A program made the translations under genes and the position numbers. A DNA stretch of 8,736 nucleotides from a bacterium (GTDB lineage Bacteria > JAMCPX01). The stretch is from positions 1 through 8,736 of the forward strand of contig JAJYJX010000106.1 of assembly GCA_021789095.1 (NCBI GenBank). The letters are read 5' to 3'. Numbering within the stretch: position 1 is the first letter of the stretch; each line of letters begins with the position of its first letter. The notes under the pieces are model-generated. The model did no database searches, had not been told where the DNA came from, and saw only the letters and a program-made list of their open reading frames with translations. Positions 2 through 7,840 of this stretch are shown here, piece after piece.

Positions 2-355
2 TACGGCAGTATTTTCAAGTTTGAGGGACAGGCAACAGTATTCTCCCCTGGTGAAGGGCCGTGCTTCAGGTGCCTTTATCCGGAGCCGCCGCCGCCTGGA
101 ATGGTCCCAAGCTGCCAGGAGGCAGGCGTGTTTGGTGTACTGCCGGGCTTTGTAGGCATGATACAGGCAACTGAAGCGATTAAAATTTTACTTGGTATTG
201 GGAAACCGCTTATAGGCAGGATGATGATTTATGATGCACTGCGTATGGAGGTAAGGCAGATGAAGATCCGGAAAGATCCCGAATGTCCTGTATGCGGTGA
301 ACATCCTATCGTTACCAAGCTGATAGATTATGAGCAATTCTGCGGTGTTCGATGA
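2..355 (+). CDS. ThiF/MoeB/HesA-family sulfur-carrier adenylyltransferase, C-terminal part (5' end outside window)
   Basis: E1-like enzymes of this family adenylate the C-terminal Gly-Gly of a small ubiquitin-like carrier (ThiS, MoaD or a CysO-like protein) so that it can take up sulfur as a thiocarboxylate. The open frame enters from the left edge and shows 117 residues. Two CxxC pairs, at visible residues 21/24 and 95/98, match the structural zinc site. A Cys at visible residue 38 in SCQEAGVFG lies where ThiF-type enzymes carry the cysteine that can bond to the carrier. The following segment (GxxGxxQAxEAIKxLLG) is typical of the family. The N-terminal ATP-binding half lies outside the window, so MoeB, ThiF and HesA cannot be told apart. 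No rhodanese domain follows. The stop codon overlaps the next start by 4 bases, so the downstream DsrE-like gene is co-translated. Given the neighbours, I infer that the carrier serves cysteine or other sulfur assimilation. Confidence 0.9.
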   Translation, partial: YGSIFKFEGQATVFSPGEGPCFRCLYPEPPPPGMVPSCQEAGVFGVLPGFVGMIQATEAIKILLGIGKPLIGRMMIYDALRMEVRQMKIRKDPECPVCGEHPIVTKLIDYEQFCGVR

Positions 356-648
356 AAATATGCATACTTGTCGCTGTGTCAGGTCAAACAATTTTAAGCA
401 CGTTACAGCGTCTTTATGATGACTACAAAGACGGCATAGAACTATTTTTGTATAACGACGGCGCCTTACTTTTGCATGATCCGGCGTTTATAGAACTGTC
501 AAAACATATGAAAACTACGGTATGCGACGTAAGCGCCGGAGAGAGGGGCATAAACAAACGTGAAGGGGTTATTTTCGGCAGCCTGTATAATCTTTCCGGT
601 ATGATTGCGCATGCAGACCGGTTCTTGTCTTTCGCAAGGGCATCATGA
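352..648 (+). CDS. DsrE/TusD-like sulfur-relay protein
   Basis: A 98-residue protein of the DsrE/DsrF fold, whose members carry or pass on persulfide sulfur as subunits of TusBCD or DsrEFH complexes. It has an N-terminal beta strand (residues 1-9), an acidic strand-turn FLYNDGALLL (32-41), and Cys58 in VCDVSAGERG. That last motif aligns by eye with the active-site cysteine region of TusD/DsrE (C-x-aa-x-x-RRG). The C-terminus (FGSLYNLSGMIAHADRFLSF) matches the usual 'GL..l......aDR...F' ending. At 98 residues it is somewhat shorter than TusD. The start ATG overlaps the upstream stop (ATGA), and its own stop overlaps the next gene in the same way, so three genes form a tightly coupled unit. The substrate is not evident. 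A persulfide carrier is the best reading from the conserved cysteine and context. Confidence 0.75.
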   Translation: MKICILVAVSGQTILSTLQRLYDDYKDGIELFLYNDGALLLHDPAFIELSKHMKTTVCDVSAGERGINKREGVIFGSLYNLSGMIAHADRFLSFARAS

Positions 649-956
649 ATATAGCGGTTTTAATTAAGGATAATGGCACAGCACGGCTGCATGATGGCAT
701 ACGACTTGCCCTTGGTTTGACCATCAACCACAAAATTTCATTACTTATTACTGCCCGGGGTGCAGATGCCCTTTCAACAGCTTTAAAAGATGACGCGTTT
801 AGAAAACAGTTTTTGGAGGCCGCTGAACTTATTCATTCAATGTCAGGGAATATGAAAACCGAAAAAGCCGTTGCCGGTGTGGATACTATAACCGTTATCT
901 CGAGAGATGACCTGACAAAGATATTGCTTGAATCAGATTCAATCATCACTTTTTAA
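645..956 (+). CDS. DsrF/TusC-like protein of the DsrE family, no cysteine
   Basis: A 103-residue protein with the pattern of DsrF/TusC: a first strand (MNIAVLIKD), then 'LHDGIRLALGLTI' as the helix that in TusC reads 'xEGLdxaLa', then 'KISLLI' as the second strand, and a C-terminal segment 'ITVISRDDLTKILLESDSIITF' that resembles the end of TusC/DsrF. It contains no cysteine, so it cannot itself bind a persulfide. In known hexamers the TusC/DsrF subunit is likewise non-catalytic. It starts inside the stop of the DsrE-like gene (ATGA). I see no third subunit (DsrH/TusB) next to it. The similarity is weak enough that 'DsrE-fold protein' is safer than a definite TusC assignment. It is the last gene before a 156-bp gap. 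Confidence 0.6.
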   Translation: MNIAVLIKDNGTARLHDGIRLALGLTINHKISLLITARGADALSTALKDDAFRKQFLEAAELIHSMSGNMKTEKAVAGVDTITVISRDDLTKILLESDSIITF

Positions 957-996
957 CATACTGTAAAACATAGGGTTTGTTCAATAAAAATACTTC

Positions 997-1026
997 TTGA
1001 CAAGAAAACCAATAATTAATTAATTA
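997..1026 (+). promoter_or_regulatory. Candidate sigma-70-type promoter for cysH-dsrE2-tusA operon
   Basis: A perfect TTGACA (997-1002) is followed after 18 bases by TAATTA (1021-1026), in the A/T-rich gap between the DsrF/TusC-like gene and cysH. Overlapping TAATTA copies (1013-1018 and 1017-1022) make the exact -10 uncertain. The expected start point, near 1033, falls inside the adjacent palindrome and leaves a leader of about 80 bases before cysH. This is a motif match only. No transcript data are available. Confidence 0.45.
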
Positions 1027-1050
1027 AACATAAGTAAAATACTCATGTTT
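1026..1050. promoter_or_regulatory. 25-bp near-palindrome, candidate operator at the cysH promoter
   Basis: Eleven-base arms (1026-1036, AAACATAAGTA, and 1040-1050, TACTCATGTTT) flank a 3-base AAA centre and match at 10 of 11 positions; A1032 opposite C1044 is the exception. It begins at the end of the proposed -10 and covers the expected transcription start, the usual place for a repressor site. The dyad is A/T-rich with no T-run after it, so it is a poor terminator. The cognate regulator cannot be named. A sulfur- or cysteine-responsive repressor would fit the downstream genes, but this is inference. Confidence 0.45.
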
Positions 1051-1112
1051 GATAAGCTATGAAATTTTATTGGCCGTGCTTAGTATACAAAAACATATAA
1101 AAGGAGAACAGG

Positions 1113-1799
1113 ATGCTTGCCGTAAGAGAAATTTCAGAGATTGCATTGAGATTTGAAGACAGTCCGCCGCAGGAGATTATTTCATGGGCTGTAAACACAT
1201 TCAATCAAGATATTGCATTTGCATGCAGCTTTGGCATGGAAGACGTATGCATTGTGGATATGATTGTAAAAGCAGGACAGGAAACAAATATATTTTATCT
1301 CGATACCTCCCTGCTTTTTAACGAAACGCATGAGCTGATAAAAAAGCTCGAGGACAGATACCGTATAAAATTCGAAAGTGTCAGAACCGAATGCACCCTT
1401 GAACAACAGGCAAACCAGCACGGCGATGATCTCTGGACTGTCAACCCGGATCTATGCTGCAACATAAGGAAGGTTGCCCCTCTCAAGAAAAAGCTTTCAA
1501 CATTAAGGGCATGGATGACCGGCATACGGAGGGACCAGACCCCGGAGCGAGCAAGCGCAAAGACCGTTGAATGGGACAAAAAATTCGGGCTTGTTAAGAT
1601 CAACCCGCTTGTACGATGGACAAGCGGTGATACAAAGGATTATATAGTGAAACACGGCGTACCGTACAATCCGCTGCATGACAAAGGGTATCCGAGCATA
1701 GGGTGTGAACCGTGTACCTTCCCGGTAAAACCAGGGGAGGAACCCCGTTCGGGCAGATGGAAGGGTTTTGCAAAAAAGGAATGCGGGTTACATAAATGA
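1113..1799 (+). CDS. cysH: Assimilatory adenylyl-sulfate (APS) reductase, [4Fe-4S] CysH type
   Basis: Reduces adenosine 5'-phosphosulfate to sulfite and AMP in the cytoplasm with thioredoxin-type reductant. The 228-residue length is usual for the bacterial single-domain enzyme. The PP-loop region is FACSFGMEDVCIVD (37-50), followed by FYLDTSLLF (61-69). Cys115-Cys116 and Cys198-x2-Cys201 are the four iron-sulfur cysteines that mark APS rather than PAPS reductases. WMTGIRRDQTPERA (134-147) is the substrate-binding arginine motif. The catalytic cysteine is Cys224 in the terminal KECGLH. All key residues are present, so it should be active. The start is supported by AAGGAG (1101-1106) six bases upstream. 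It heads a cluster with dsrE2 and tusA, which suggests that the sulfite or sulfide made here feeds a protein-bound sulfur relay. The partners sat and sulfite reductase are not in the window. Confidence 0.95.
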   Translation: MLAVREISEIALRFEDSPPQEIISWAVNTFNQDIAFACSFGMEDVCIVDMIVKAGQETNIFYLDTSLLFNETHELIKKLEDRYRIKFESVRTECTLEQQANQHGDDLWTVNPDLCCNIRKVAPLKKKLSTLRAWMTGIRRDQTPERASAKTVEWDKKFGLVKINPLVRWTSGDTKDYIVKHGVPYNPLHDKGYPSIGCEPCTFPVKPGEEPRSGRWKGFAKKECGLHK

Positions 1800-1902
1800 A
1801 CCCCGTTAGAAAGTCGGCCGTAAGCCGATCGCTTCTGACGGAAAGACATGCTGGATTTATTATAGTATTCCCGCTATGAATAGTAAAACTTTCTAACGGG
1901 GT
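1800..1902. repeat. 103-bp intergenic element with 15-bp perfect terminal inverted repeats
   Basis: The arms 1800-1814 (ACCCCGTTAGAAAGT) and 1888-1902 (its exact reverse complement) enclose 73 bases that themselves contain small dyads: CGGC/GCCG (1815-1818 with 1824-1827) and TATTC/GAATA (1866-1870 with 1878-1882). The element starts on the base after the cysH stop and ends just before the dsrE2 ribosome site (AGGAGG, 1906-1911), so it fills nearly the whole spacer. No reading frame or clear target-site duplication is seen. It could be a MITE-like or REP-like genomic repeat, or an RNA structure that sets relative expression of cysH and the downstream genes. The arms do not reach the ribosome site, so direct masking is unlikely. 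An intrinsic terminator is unlikely because of the long loop and lack of a T-run. Confidence 0.75.
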
Positions 1903-1916
1903 AAAAGGAGGTTCCA

Positions 1917-2390
1917 ATGGACAAAGCTATAATTGTCGTATTCTCCGGAGACATGGACAAGGTGATGGCTGCATTCAACATTGCCGTCGGTGCAGCTTCT
2001 TCGGGCATGGAAGTGACCATGCTCTACACGTTCTGGGGACTGAATGTGCTGAGGAAAGACAAAACAGGGAGCCGGACAAGCGGGATTATGCAAAAAATGC
2101 TGACATGGATAAATAAGGGCGGTACGGAGAACCTTCCGATGTCCCGTTTCAATATGTTCGGTCTGGGGACATGGATGATGAAAAAGCTCATGAAAAGATA
2201 CAGCATGCCTACGGTAAAGCAGCTCTACACCACTGCAAAGCAGCTCGGCGTAAAGATGATAGCATGCACCATCACCATGGGTGTTATGGGCATAGGCAAG
2301 GAAGACCTTGTGGACGATATTGATGAATTCGCAGGAGTGATTACATATATAAAAGATGCGAAAGAATCGAAAATAAACCTTTTTATATAG
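1917..2390 (+). CDS. dsrE2: DsrE2-type sulfur carrier protein
   Basis: A 157-residue member of the DsrE2 branch of the DsrE/DsrF/DrsH superfamily. Visible hallmarks are the N-terminal strand KAIIVVFSGDMDKVMAAF, the FWGLNVLRK motif (39-47), a Met-rich middle segment (residues 59-97), and IACTITMGVMGI (115-126), where Cys117 is the only cysteine and sits at the family's persulfide-carrying position. DsrE2 proteins in sulfur-metabolising bacteria and archaea are commonly encoded beside tusA and are thought to exchange sulfane sulfur with it. Exactly that order is found here. The ribosome site AGGAGG (1906-1911) is strong and lies five bases before the ATG. The protein is fairly hydrophobic, and membrane association has been suggested for some relatives. 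The gene follows cysH after the inverted-repeat element and its stop codon overlaps the ribosome site of tusA, so those two are likely coupled. Confidence 0.88.
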   Translation: MDKAIIVVFSGDMDKVMAAFNIAVGAASSGMEVTMLYTFWGLNVLRKDKTGSRTSGIMQKMLTWINKGGTENLPMSRFNMFGLGTWMMKKLMKRYSMPTVKQLYTTAKQLGVKMIACTITMGVMGIGKEDLVDDIDEFAGVITYIKDAKESKINLFI

Positions 2391-2400
2391 GAGCACGCAC

Positions 2401-2631
2401 ATGGATATAAACAAAATAGTGGATGCAAGCGGGCTTTTGTGCCCGCTGCCGATACTCAAGACTGTACAGGCTGTAAAAGAGATGAAGGTAGGAGAGGTGC
2501 TTGAAATAACAGCCACGGATCCGGGTATAAAGCCGGACATCAAAAACTGGTGTGAGATGATGGGACATGAGCTTATAGACATCCAGGACAAAGACAACAA
2601 GATCATCGTTCACCTGAAAAAATCGAAATAA
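2401..2631 (+). CDS. tusA: TusA-family sulfurtransferase / sulfur carrier
   Basis: A 76-residue protein with the usual TusA length and order. DASGLLCPLPILK (8-20) holds the persulfide-accepting Cys14 in the CPxP motif, followed by the amphipathic helix and the strand GEVLEITATDPG (31-42), where the Asp-Pro is typical. It ends in a basic strand HLKKSK. A second cysteine, Cys51 in NWCEMMGHEL, is also common in the family. TusA takes sulfane sulfur from a desulfurase or rhodanese and hands it to DsrE-type partners, here most simply the adjacent DsrE2. The ribosome site AGGAG (2389-2393) overlaps the dsrE2 stop codon, which favours translational coupling and roughly matched amounts of the two proteins. 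Whether it serves tRNA thiolation, cofactor sulfur or assimilation cannot be told from sequence. The neighbouring cysH favours assimilation or sulfur shuttling. Confidence 0.93.
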   Translation: MDINKIVDASGLLCPLPILKTVQAVKEMKVGEVLEITATDPGIKPDIKNWCEMMGHELIDIQDKDNKIIVHLKKSK

Positions 2632-3676: not shown

Positions 3677-3745
3677 TATTTATACGTTTGCCTATCCATT
3701 TCTGATGACAAATGTAAGTGCCGGTGATAGTAACCATAATCAATG

Positions 3746-3751
3746 AAGGAG
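3746..3751 (+). promoter_or_regulatory. Ribosome binding site that fixes the GMC oxidoreductase start
   Basis: AAGGAG lies eight bases before the ATG at 3760. An in-frame GTG at 3718 would add 14 residues (starting MPVIVTIINE) but has no ribosome site upstream of it and would place this AAGGAG inside the coding sequence. The ATG at 3760 is therefore preferred. Confidence 0.7.
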
Positions 3752-3759
3752 TTGGAGCT

Positions 3760-5634
3760 ATGAACAAACGAAAACTCTTTATAAGTCTTCTCGAAGCCAT
3801 TACCCAGAAACCTGATATATCCGATGAAGTAAAACAAAAGTCCGTTATCCAGCTTGAATCCTATCTGAAAGACGCCCCGGCGCTGGTAAGGTTTGTGTTC
3901 CCATTCCTTTTATATTTGGTTGAATATTTGCCTGTATTTACCAGATTTACGAGGCTTTCAAGGATGGATATTGATAAAAGATCCGAATACCTTGGCAGCT
4001 TCAACGGAAGAATAGGCGGCAATATTTTAATGGTGCTCAAGCTCTTTGTCACGCTTTCATACTACTCTGTTGATGACATTGAACGCAAGCTCGGTTTCAT
4101 AAGGCACTGCGAGGACATTAAAGGAAGGATAAAAAAGCCTCTATTTATTGACGGTGCTGAAGCAGATAAGGATATAAGCATAGACACCGACGTATGTGTC
4201 ATAGGGAGCGGTGCAGGCGGGGCAGCAGCAGCATACACTATTGCCAAAGCGGGTATGAAAACCGTTATCCTTGAAGAAGGCAGATACCTCACCGGTGAGG
4301 ATTTCACGCAAAAGCCCGTGGATGCACTGAGTACAGCGTACAGGGACCACGGATTTATAACATCTTTTGGCACACCGCCAATAATCATCCCGCTTGGTAA
4401 GTCGGTTGGAGGTACGACGACCATAAACTCAGGTACATGCTACAGAATGCCATCGTCTGTTATTAAAAACTGGCATGATCAGTACGGCATAGACTGGCTG
4501 ACATGCAACGAGTACAGCAGACTGGCTTCATTTGTAGAAAAGGAGATACATGTAGAGCCTGTGCCTGAACGCATATTCGGAAAAAACAGCGGACTTTTCA
4601 GAAAAGGCACAGAGGCGCTCGGACTTGCGGGTGCGCCCATACCGAGGAATGCCTATGAGTGCGACGGCTGTGCGTTCTGCGCATTCGGCTGTCCGAGAGA
4701 TGCAAAATATGGCACCATGCTGAATTTTATCCCTGATGCAATAAAACACGGGGCAACATTGTATTCGAATACAAAAGCTGTAAAGCTTGTAATAAATAAC
4801 AACAGGGTTGAAGGTGTAAAAGGCGCATTCCTTGATCTCCACGGGAAGCCAACATCAAAGCGTATTACAGTAAGTGCAAAATACGTGGTTGTGTCCGCGG
4901 GGGCGATATATACTCCTGTTTTTCTGAAGAAGAACGGCTTAAAACATCCTCGTATAGGCAAGAACCTGCATATCCATCCGGCAGCGCGCGTGTCTGCAAT
5001 GTTCGGTGAACGGGTGGACGGCTGGGTAGGCGTGCCGCAAGGCTACAATATACATCACTATGTCAATGAGGGTATATTCATACAGGGACAGTTTGTTCCT
5101 CCATCAGTATTGTCCCAGTCCATTCCATTTGTCGGCAGCCGGCATTCTGCCCTCATGGACAGATACGCATACATGGGCTCATTCGGTGCACTTATCTCCG
5201 ATACAGGCTCCGGCAGTGTTTCACCAGGCCTGGTCAGTCCCATGATATTTTATAACCTCTCCAAAGAGGACCATGTCAGGATGATAAAATCCATTGCAAT
5301 AACAGCAAAGGTATGGTTTGCGGCAGGCGCAAAAGAGGTCCACACGCAGATCGCAACAAGGCCTGTTATACACAGTGCAAAAGATGCAGATGAATTAAAG
5401 GACAAATTACCGCCTGCATGGGCGCTTGAGCTTATGGCTTTTCATCCAATGGGCACTGCCATGATGGGTGGCGATGAGAACACTGCTGTAGTAAAACCGG
5501 ATGGAGAGACATACGAGGTAAAAGGTCTTTATGTTGCAGATGCCTCCCTGTTCCCGACATCAACAAAGCTCAACCCTCAGATCACGATCATGAGCATGGC
5601 AACGAAAGTAGGAGAGGAAATCAGCAGGCACTAA
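3760..5634 (+). CDS. GMC-family FAD-dependent oxidoreductase with ferredoxin-like cysteine motif
   Basis: A 624-residue flavoenzyme of the glucose-methanol-choline family, which oxidises alcohols, sterols or sugars. The first ~135 residues are a helical extension with a hydrophobic stretch at about 40-63 that might touch a membrane. The FAD dinucleotide motif is VIGSGAGGAAAA (147-158), the GMC loop is GKSVGGTTTINSG (213-225), and the C-terminal catalytic pair is His562 in HPMGT and Asn605 in NPQITI. Between the FAD and substrate regions, Cys301, Cys304, Cys307 and Cys311 form CxxCxxCxxxCP, the spacing of a [4Fe-4S] ferredoxin site. Long-chain alcohol oxidase relatives have a cysteine cluster around this place, but the exact ferredoxin spacing is noteworthy. 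The substrate is unknown. In an anaerobe electrons would more likely go to a carrier than to oxygen. It seems to be a single-gene unit between its own promoter and a convergent spacer. Confidence 0.9.
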   Translation: MNKRKLFISLLEAITQKPDISDEVKQKSVIQLESYLKDAPALVRFVFPFLLYLVEYLPVFTRFTRLSRMDIDKRSEYLGSFNGRIGGNILMVLKLFVTLSYYSVDDIERKLGFIRHCEDIKGRIKKPLFIDGAEADKDISIDTDVCVIGSGAGGAAAAYTIAKAGMKTVILEEGRYLTGEDFTQKPVDALSTAYRDHGFITSFGTPPIIIPLGKSVGGTTTINSGTCYRMPSSVIKNWHDQYGIDWLTCNEYSRLASFVEKEIHVEPVPERIFGKNSGLFRKGTEALGLAGAPIPRNAYECDGCAFCAFGCPRDAKYGTMLNFIPDAIKHGATLYSNTKAVKLVINNNRVEGVKGAFLDLHGKPTSKRITVSAKYVVVSAGAIYTPVFLKKNGLKHPRIGKNLHIHPAARVSAMFGERVDGWVGVPQGYNIHHYVNEGIFIQGQFVPPSVLSQSIPFVGSRHSALMDRYAYMGSFGALISDTGSGSVSPGLVSPMIFYNLSKEDHVRMIKSIAITAKVWFAAGAKEVHTQIATRPVIHSAKDADELKDKLPPAWALELMAFHPMGTAMMGGDENTAVVKPDGETYEVKGLYVADASLFPTSTKLNPQITIMSMATKVGEEISRH

Positions 5635-5667: not shown

Positions 5668-5849
5668 AAAGGGAAGAGTTCGATTCGATGTGAAGTCGCA
5701 CACCGTGAACTGCATGGTGGATCTTCGTGGCAGGCTGCGTGGACTACTTCGCTGACAGTGTCAAAAGAAAATGTTTGCATTTTTAAACGCTGTGTCCGTT
5801 TAGCAAAAACAGCCTTGTGCGGCGGACGGAGGAGAAAACTCTTCCCTTT
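5668..5849. repeat. 182-bp structured intergenic element closed by a 13-bp perfect inverted repeat
   Basis: The arms 5668-5680 (AAAGGGAAGAGTT) and 5837-5849 are exact reverse complements. Inside, further arms pair in nested order: 5695-5702 with 5816-5823 (8 pairs, one G-U), 5732-5737 with 5810-5815 (AGGCTG/CAGCCT), a hairpin 5703-5717, and a hairpin 5774-5807 with arms TTTGC+TAAACG and CGTTTA+GCAAA around a 7-base loop. A local hairpin 5828-5845 (GGAGGAG, AAAA loop, CTCTTCC) competes with the outer stem. The G-U pairs are possible only if the + strand is the RNA. A 77-codon minus-strand frame (5664-5897) overlaps it but looks non-coding. The element lies 33 bases after the GMC stop in a convergent gap and holds no transposase. 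It is either a dispersed non-autonomous repeat or an unrecognised structured RNA. The rest of the 294-bp gap shows nothing else convincing. Confidence 0.65.
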
Positions 5850-5928: not shown

Positions 5929-7308
5929 TTAAGGGTCCGGTTTCTTGACCTTATACCTTTCCCACAATACAACTGTGCTTAACCATAGAAGCGGCGGTGC
6001 GAGCTGTGTCATTGTTCTGAGAATGGAATATCCCAGCTGCCACTGGATCGTATGGGGCGTTATAATATACACGGTGGAATAAATGAAAAACAGCAGGACA
6101 AAAGGCAGCCAGAGCGTACCGTACCTACTCCTTGTTGATTCATGGCTTAGCATAACGATCAATCCTATGAGTGCAATCAACCATAAAAAACCCGTGCCTT
6201 TTACCGGGGGAAAAGTGCCCGTAAAAAAGTGATAATAATGATCCAATATTACCGGCATCCTGTCTTTCATCAATGGTATCTGATGAAATACGTTTATAAA
6301 AAGATCAGACCTTATTCCATACATTAACTTTGTTATAAACCACGGGAGTCCGAGTATTGCCGAGGGTATGAAATAATACATCCATGCCTTCCTGGTTATG
6401 CCGGGCGTAAAAATCAAAAGAAAGGAAAACATAACAAAAAATGCAAAACCTTCATTCTTTGTATTTGCAAGGAAGCCTGTCAGCATACCAAGCATGAACG
6501 CCATTTTAAGCGAAGAGCGTGTAAGAAGTTTTATATATACAATAAGTATGCCGGTCAGATAGGCTGCAACGATGATATCCGTATCCCCGCCTACCGAGTT
6601 GGAAATAACAATAGGGTTAAACAATATGATAAGCAGGGAAAAGAGCGCGATGGAACGTGATGTTTTAAGCTTCAATGAACCGTAAAAGATGCCTGCGAGG
6701 GCCATGTAATAGCCTATAGAAACAAACTGGATTAACTGGTAATTGTCAGAGCCTATGAAGTGATAGCACCAGTATTCAAGCAAAGGCAGCAGTAAAGGGT
6801 AATCAAGATGGATATGACCGTATCTCGTAACATCAGTAAAAAAACCCATATTTATTTTGTTAGATATAAAAAGGGATTTGGCTGTAAACCCGTAGGTAAG
6901 CAGGCCGTCCCAGTTGGGTGCACCTGATATGCCTCCTGAAATCACACCGACGATTATAAAAAGGACAGGCAGGATTAACAGGTATTCATGATATTTTAAC
7001 GGTTTTGCCTCTGAGATAATTTCCCATAGGTGCATGCGCTTGCCGTGCGACCACAGGATAAAGGAGGGTATCCCTGATGCCAACAGGAAACCATACACAA
7101 ACCACGGACTGAACCTGCCCAGCATTACAGAGCTTATGCCCAGCAGTGCCCCGGTAATACCCGAGCCTATGATATAGCTGAAGCCTATAAATTCAGGCAA
7201 TGAAAATTCGTCGTACAATACCACGAACATTATAAATGCACCTGCAAGCCATGTAATAAGGATTGAGATGCATGTCAGGGACAGATTTAATAAGAGCTCA
7301 GTTGGCAT
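5929..7308 (-). CDS. GT-C fold glycosyltransferase-like polytopic membrane protein (PMT/ArnT-like)
   Basis: A 459-residue integral membrane protein with roughly eleven hydrophobic segments. The large extracytoplasmic loop after the fourth one carries NWDGLLTYGFTAKSL (132-146), where Asp134 occupies the place of the catalytic aspartate of PMT/ArnT-type GT-C enzymes. HLDYPLLLPLLEYW (167-180) and the GGDTDIIVAAYL (240-251) and KNEG (284-287) motifs follow in the usual family order. Such enzymes move a sugar from a polyprenyl-phosphate donor to a protein or glycolipid on the outer face of the inner membrane. Donor and acceptor are not evident. The start overlaps the upstream gene by 11 bases and is preceded only by a weak ribosome-site-like AGAGAG, so translational coupling is likely. 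It is the last gene of the minus-strand operon. No convincing terminator follows. Confidence 0.8.
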   Translation of the reverse strand: MPTELLLNLSLTCISILITWLAGAFIMFVVLYDEFSLPEFIGFSYIIGSGITGALLGISSVMLGRFSPWFVYGFLLASGIPSFILWSHGKRMHLWEIISEAKPLKYHEYLLILPVLFIIVGVISGGISGAPNWDGLLTYGFTAKSLFISNKINMGFFTDVTRYGHIHLDYPLLLPLLEYWCYHFIGSDNYQLIQFVSIGYYMALAGIFYGSLKLKTSRSIALFSLLIILFNPIVISNSVGGDTDIIVAAYLTGILIVYIKLLTRSSLKMAFMLGMLTGFLANTKNEGFAFFVMFSFLLIFTPGITRKAWMYYFIPSAILGLPWFITKLMYGIRSDLFINVFHQIPLMKDRMPVILDHYYHFFTGTFPPVKGTGFLWLIALIGLIVMLSHESTRSRYGTLWLPFVLLFFIYSTVYIITPHTIQWQLGYSILRTMTQLAPPLLWLSTVVLWERYKVKKPDP

Positions 7309-7840
7309 GCTCTCTGCCCTTTGTTTTTGTAATCGTAACCGTACCGTCCTCTGCAGTTATAAGGAATACGCAGGGATAGCTGCCGGTCGAACTCACGGGT
7401 TCTGCCTCAGGTGTTATTCTCCAGCTGAAAACAATGCGGTAGAGCTTGTTACCTTTGCTGAAGCCCCAGTCAACATGCCGTGGATAAAGGTTGTAATTGG
7501 TTCTGTAAAGAAGATACGCCCATTGACCAAGCAGGGTATTTTTGCCGCCCAATCCTTCTTTGACCAGTTTGTCGTACGGAAGCTCAACAAAACAGGCACC
7601 CTGTGTTTTTCGGAATTCATGTTCAAGCATATCATCGACTGTTTTTACGAGCAGGCCTTCCTGAAGCCATTGCCTCTGCCGGTAGGTTAGTTCTGCGAAT
7701 TTCAGAGATTGAAAGATCTCCTTTATGGGGTTTATTACATATATAAGCTCGGATACAAAAGCGGTAATGAACAAACCGACCAGTAAAACATGCATAACAA
7801 CCATTCCGTATTTATTATGAGTGGATGTCCTAGCGGGCAT
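7298..7840 (-). CDS. Small single-pass membrane protein between two GT-C genes, function unknown
   Basis: A 180-residue protein with one hydrophobic segment near the N-terminus (about 12-37) and a soluble remainder predicted outside. It has no signal-peptidase site I would trust, so it is probably anchored. The middle section contains a hydrophobic/aromatic 'WAYLLYRTNYNLYPRHVDWG' stretch (107-126). The 'YrxYPR' pattern is one I associate with soluble parts of membrane glycan-assembly proteins, but I cannot name a family. The start ATG is supported by AAGGA (complement of 7848-7852) seven bases upstream, and a later Met at residue 13 is an alternative. The gene overlaps both neighbours by 11 bases, which argues that the product works with the flanking glycosyltransferases, perhaps as an accessory or acceptor-recognition subunit. 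That role is inference. Confidence 0.8.
   Translation of the reverse strand: MPARTSTHNKYGMVVMHVLLVGLFITAFVSELIYVINPIKEIFQSLKFAELTYRQRQWLQEGLLVKTVDDMLEHEFRKTQGACFVELPYDKLVKEGLGGKNTLLGQWAYLLYRTNYNLYPRHVDWGFSKGNKLYRIVFSWRITPEAEPVSSTGSYPCVFLITAEDGTVTITKTKGREHAN

What the first reader, a model, noticed from the sequence alone, without database searches (positions are those of the whole stretch)
5668..5849. Highly nested 182-bp structured element with sense-strand G-U pairs, between convergent genes
A 13-bp perfect inverted repeat closes a block in which at least four further stems nest without crossing. All the non-Watson-Crick pairs I found (U5696-G5822, G5705-U5715 and the competing G5831-U5842) are G-U on the + strand; on the - strand they would be C-A mismatches. 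That bias hints at selection on a + strand RNA rather than on double-stranded DNA alone. I cannot assign it to a known RNA family. The alternative is a dispersed non-autonomous repeat.
Basis: partly seen in the sequence, partly recalled or inferred. Interest (0 to 1): 0.6.

Follow-up and report, generated by a model that had tools for sequence, protein, structure and literature searches.

The report
Dispersed hairpin repeat between genes
The 182-bp block is one of six copies in this genome of a small non-coding repeat that spreads and disappears between genes in one bacterial family; its two ends mirror each other and change together, but nothing found here shows that it works as an RNA.

Summary
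The 13-bp inverted repeat and the boundaries 5668-5849 are real. A family model recovers exactly these ends, and the fold beats all 200 shuffles (z -4.0). The block is one of six copies in its own genome. The family occurs in 8 of 9 genomes of the same bacterial family (0 to 47 copies each); among 281 other genomes there was one borderline hit. Copies are present in some relatives and absent in others at the same gene junctions. In one relative about 30 near-identical copies sit inside a 241-bp miniature transposon with 8-bp target duplications and ISL3-type ends. The two arms (closing stem plus a second stem) change together: 18 of 27 pairs vary on both sides, and 0 of 1000 tree-based simulations match this. 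The interior stems do not hold up: inside the second stem folding is no better than shuffled sequence (mean z +0.37), and the family G-U : A-C ratio is 24:19, so the strand argument for a + strand RNA fails. At one orthologous site the interior is inverted between the arms; arm correction plus spacer inversion is what replication template switching produces. Verdict: a new family of a known kind, a MITE-like non-autonomous repeat. An RNA role is possible but unsupported.

The parts
5668..5849 (+). full-length copy of the dispersed repeat (core element)
   Evidence: CM R1 match, positions 1-183 of 183, E 4.7e-39; blastn copies elsewhere in the same genome
5668..5680 (+). left arm of the closing inverted repeat (P0)
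   Evidence: native arms pair far better than swapped arms across copies, z -11.6
5837..5849 (+). right arm of the closing inverted repeat (P0)
5689..5702 (+). left strand of inner arm pairing: 5689-5691 (3 bp) and P1 5695-5702
   Evidence: duplex in window copy; columns 24-38 of A3 covary
5816..5828 (+). right strand of inner arm pairing: P1 5816-5823 and 5826-5828
5703..5815 (+). interior: conserved blocks (ACTGC ... CTGCGTGGACnnCTTC; CCGTTTAGCAAAAA) and a variable middle; no structure above chance, no reading frame

Best explanation
The block is a copy of a non-autonomous, MITE-like dispersed DNA repeat about 180 bp long, found so far only in one bacterial family. It encodes no protein. Its two ends form a long imperfect inverted repeat of about 37 nt per arm, and the interior carries conserved sequence blocks. 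Shown here: many copies per genome; gain or loss at orthologous gene junctions; carriage in one relative inside a 241-bp miniature transposon with 8-bp target duplications; arms that stay complementary as they change, including after insertion at the same site; inversion of the interior between the arms at one site. Inferred: copies are spread by transposases acting in trans (an ISL3-type enzyme in the relative G005; the enzyme for the window copy is unknown), settle mainly just behind stop codons where they do little harm, and keep their arms matched mainly by template switching during DNA replication, which copies one arm onto the other and occasionally flips the spacer. The hairpin in the transcript would then be largely a by-product.
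For: Six copies in the own genome; 24 in G004, 47 matches in G005, 0-3 in the other six genomes of the family; none in 281 other genomes except one hit at E 3.8e-4, expected by chance; none in plasmids, phages or viral contigs. A scan of 84,980 species genomes found multiple pattern hits only in MAGs of this group; the scattered hits elsewhere are about the number I estimated for chance. Presence/absence: at the window junction five relatives with an orthologous GMC gene lack it; at the acyl-CoA dehydrogenase junction G004, G002 and G005 have it, and G001, G008, G006 and G003 do not; four G004 copies are absent at the same junctions in same-genus genomes. MITE in G005: 241 bp, exact 8-bp direct repeats at 7 of 15 distinct testable loci; same end sequence beside an ISL3 transposase remnant in G003. 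Arm co-change: 18/27 pairs with double changes, 0/500 shuffles; tree null 0/1000; same-site comparisons show 9 double changes, 2 single changes, and every pair still formed. Spacer inversion: G002 versus G005 interior 89% identical when inverted, flanks 80-82%. No strand bias 24:19. Mostly 3' of genes: 11 convergent, 10 tandem, 1 divergent. Template switching causes arm homogenization and spacer inversion (PMC8604942) and can mimic compensatory change (PMC8794818).
Against: No target duplication or transposase-related end was found around the window copy or around other core copies outside G005. No copy lies beside the Y1 or IS110 transposases examined. The conserved interior blocks are not explained by end recognition or by template switching, and they leave room for a function. 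The model-fitted alignment gives G-U:A-C 26:11.
Confidence: 0.8

Rival explanations
1. A structured RNA (sRNA, or a 3'-UTR element controlling mRNA stability or termination) that is selected on the + strand and happens to be multicopy.
For: Significant folding on +; arms covary, also in orthologous copies; conserved interior blocks; position just after stop codons; a terminator-like hairpin at 5828-5845 in the window copy.
Against: G-U and A-C mismatches about equal; - strand folds almost as well (mean z -2.6 versus -3.1); interior not structured above shuffles; no promoter-like site above chance; terminator hairpin not conserved by co-change (z +0.44); tandem sites more often place the - strand in the mRNA (8 '<<' to 2 '>>'); patchy presence at orthologous sites; no Rfam match.
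Confidence: 0.12
2. A cis element used as DNA, for example a protein-binding or cruciform site between convergent genes, with selection keeping the palindrome.
For: Symmetric mismatches and co-varying arms fit selection on DNA symmetry; enrichment between convergent genes.
Against: Arm sequence differs completely between subgroups (for example GGAAGAG, GGTAATAG, GGTTAGCAG), unlike a site read by one protein; many relatives lack it at the same junctions.
Confidence: 0.06
3. A decayed fragment or end of a larger autonomous element (IS or integron-like) rather than an independent repeat.
For: In G005 it is carried between ISL3-type ends.
Against: Length is constant at 176-186 bp in divergent copies; no copy is linked to a transposase gene among the loci tested; no reading frame in the block.
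Confidence: 0.1

Closest known systems
Bacterial MITEs of the Correia/NEMIS, ERIC (IRU), RUP type (review PMC2229807)
   Same: About 100-200 bp, intergenic, terminal inverted repeats, multicopy, non-coding, transcript would form a long stem-loop
   Different: No match in Rfam, plasmid or phage searches; no target duplication around the window copy; confined to one uncultured bacterial family; conserved interior blocks
ISL3-derived miniature element (G005 subfamily)
   Same: 241 bp, ISL3-type ends, 8-bp target duplications, carries the same core
   Different: These ends are absent from the window copy and from the other genomes' core copies; that 8 bp is typical of ISL3 is from my own knowledge of the family
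REP / REPIN / BIME elements moved by Y1 (RAYT) transposases (PMC3116915)
   Same: Intergenic hairpin repeats near gene ends, no target duplication around most copies; Y1 transposase genes occur in 8 of 9 genomes
   Different: Far longer than the 20-40 bp REP units (length from PMC3733652); no core match at the Y1 loci tested
Template-switch evolution of inverted repeats (PMC8604942, PMC8794818)
   Same: Arm homogenization and spacer inversion
   Different: Those are yeast coding genes and RNA gene histories; here the signature is in a bacterial repeat and inferred from single genomes

Membership tests
bacterial MITE | short, non-coding, multicopy | tested here: met
   182 bp, no conserved frame or 3-base periodicity, six copies in the own genome
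bacterial MITE | terminal inverted repeats | tested here: met
bacterial MITE | target-site duplication | tested here: inconclusive
   window copy and other core copies: none above swapped flanks; G005 subfamily: exact 8-bp repeats at 7 of 15 distinct testable loci
bacterial MITE | ends shared with an autonomous transposon | tested here: inconclusive
   met for the G005 subfamily (ISL3 remnant in G003); no partner found for the window copy
ISL3-derived MITE | ISL3-type terminal repeats and 8-bp duplications | tested here: not met
   absent around the window copy; no ISL3 transposase match in the own genome. Met only in G005
REP/REPIN | 20-40 bp palindrome unit linked to a RAYT gene | tested here: not met
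   element is 182 bp; Y1 loci tested have no core match
IS110 bridge RNA | non-coding RNA beside an IS110 transposase | tested here: not met
   no IS110 match in the own genome; no core match at the IS110 loci tested
known Rfam RNA | score above a family's gathering threshold | tested here: not met
   no match in the window; best sub-threshold match 14 bits against a 39.8-bit cut-off
structured RNA in general | covarying internal helices and tolerance of G-U over A-C | tested here: not met
   outer arms covary but the interior does not and G-U:A-C is 24:19
structured RNA in general | discrete transcript | not testable with these tools
   no expression data available

The most novel reading that the evidence does not exclude
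The conserved interior blocks and the co-changing arms mark a selected, transposon-carried non-coding RNA (or a DNA signal for an unknown mobilising enzyme) that persists at some sites after insertion and acts on the transcripts of convergent genes.
Probability: 0.1. Interest if true: 0.55.

Novelty: new member of a known kind. Interest (0 to 1): 0.3.

Why it matters
It is a caution for RNA discovery. Strong folding and significant covariation (0 of 1000 under a tree-based null) can come from a mobile inverted repeat, and the G-U versus A-C count and an interior-only folding test separate the two readings. It also gives a bacterial locus at which arm correction and spacer inversion of one inverted repeat can be read from related genomes, and it shows one repeat core carried by different mobile frames.

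Tried and rejected
Rfam: no match. Protein-coding remnant: no open frame shared and no 3-base periodicity. Interior helices: exhaustive scan found none that covary convincingly, and candidate P2 failed. Conserved terminator/anti-terminator switch at the 3' end: arm-swap z +0.44. Target duplications flanking the core outside G005: native 5.8 versus swapped 5.4 nt longest match, not significant. Mobilisation by Y1 or IS110 enzymes: genes exist in the family but no core match near those tested. Per-pair significance under the tree null was weak (best E 0.35); only the structure as a whole is significant. Empty-site comparison could not give exact insertion boundaries because intergenic flanks have diverged. 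My first alignment (A1) included one copy on the wrong strand and was discarded.

Full report
What the sequence shows. The window carries a GMC oxidoreductase gene (3718-5634, +) and a converging membrane-protein gene without a Pfam match (5929-7308, -). Between them lies the block 5668-5849. The 13-bp inverted repeat is exact. The + strand fold beats all 200 shuffles (z -4.0) and the - strand is also unusual (z -3.0). No Rfam family matches.

It is a repeat. A blastn search of the own genome found further copies at 66-84% identity on other contigs. Relatives of the same family carry it and more distant genomes do not. A covariance model from 26 copies then gave a census: six in the own genome, 24 in G004, 47 matches in G005, three in G001, two each in G002, G003, G006 and G008, none in G007. 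Of 281 other genomes only one reached E 3.8e-4, which a search of that size yields by chance. A pattern scan of 84,980 species genomes found multiple hits only in MAG records that match the relatives by sequence (JAMCVD01 'Deltaproteobacteria bacterium' FK_Sedi_A_Bin.102 = G005 and DAHXOM01 = G004), with single hits in JAJYLN01 = G002 and JAJYUJ01 = G001. The scattered hits elsewhere were about as many as my rough estimate for chance. Viral contigs, plasmids and phages gave nothing.

It moves or is lost. At the window junction, five relatives with an orthologous GMC gene have no element. In G004, G001 and G007 the GMC gene is followed directly by the TPR gene that in the window lies 2 kb further on, so the own genome has gained the element and two genes there, or the relatives have lost them. 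Behind an acyl-CoA dehydrogenase the element is present in G004, G002 and G005 and absent in G001, G008, G006 and G003. Four G004 copies are missing at the same junctions in same-genus genomes. In G005 about 30 near-identical copies sit inside a 241-bp miniature transposon with ends GGCTCTTATCCCAAAAGTGATCATG and, inverted, GGTTCCTCTCCCCATTTGTGATCATG. Seven of 15 distinct testable loci have exact 8-bp direct repeats at its borders. The same end lies beside an ISL3 transposase remnant in G003. That ISL3 elements typically make 8-bp duplications is my own knowledge of the family.

What is structured. Only the arms. On an alignment not fitted to any structure, 18 of 27 arm pairs show double changes and 90.3% of cells pair, against 80.2% after shuffling; sliding the partner drops pairing to about 50%. 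With a tree built from non-stem columns and substitutions replayed on it, none of 1000 simulations reached the observed pairing or double changes. Native arms pair better than arms swapped between copies (closing stem z -11.6, second stem z -6.4). The interior folds no better than its shuffles in 28 copies (mean z +0.37 and +0.14), and no interior helix covaries convincingly. The interior is nevertheless unevenly conserved, and I have no tested explanation for that.

RNA or DNA. If an RNA were selected on the + strand, G-U cells should far outnumber A-C cells. The count is 24 to 19. A model-fitted alignment gives 26 to 11, but such an alignment leans towards pairs. At three orthologous sites, arm differences total nine double changes and two single ones, all still paired. 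At the acyl-CoA dehydrogenase site the interior in G005 is inverted relative to G002: 89% identity inverted, flanks 80-82%, break points within the arms. Arm homogenization plus spacer inversion is the reported outcome of template switching between inverted repeats (PMC8604942), and template switching can produce multi-base compensatory changes (PMC8794818). I take this as the likelier cause of the matched arms, without excluding selection.

Where copies sit. Of 22 copies with both neighbours, 11 lie between convergent genes, 10 between tandem genes and one between divergent genes (two sites are counted twice as orthologues). Element ends are commonly 5-80 nt from a stop codon. This fits tolerated insertion behind genes. 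It also fits a 3'-UTR role, so it does not discriminate.

Verdict. The block is a MITE-like non-autonomous repeat, new as a sequence family and ordinary in kind. For the window copy itself neither a target duplication nor a mobilising enzyme was found, so strict MITE membership is not claimed.

Noticed in passing
window 1800-1902: A second dispersed repeat family, about 100 bp, with a perfect 15-bp inverted repeat (ACCCCGTTAGAAAGT ... ACTTTCTAACGGGGT). The own-genome search listed 60 matches, many to the ends only.
   Followed up: partly
L039, L043, L187, L188 (G004): The second repeat is inserted inside four copies of the first repeat at the same position, just before the GAAACACC or AAAACACC of the second stem; one of these is orthologous to an uninterrupted copy in the own genome.
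   Followed up: partly
L131 compared with L130: The interior of one orthologous copy is inverted between its arms in G005 relative to G002.
   Followed up: yes
L159 571-647 (G008) and L172 1501-1577 (G001): 77-nt versions that keep both arms but have lost the interior, leaving a plain hairpin.
   Followed up: no
window 5929-7840: Two - strand genes without Pfam matches lie between the GMC oxidoreductase and the TPR gene; in G004, G001 and G007 those two genes are adjacent.
   Followed up: partly
flanks of L034, L042, L048, L058, L081 and others: A recurring motif like TTGCATTTTTNGGGTTAA near many copies, perhaps a third small repeat family.
   Followed up: no
window 352-2631: Sulfur-transfer gene cluster: DsrE-like proteins, PAPS-reductase-domain protein and TusA.
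   Followed up: no
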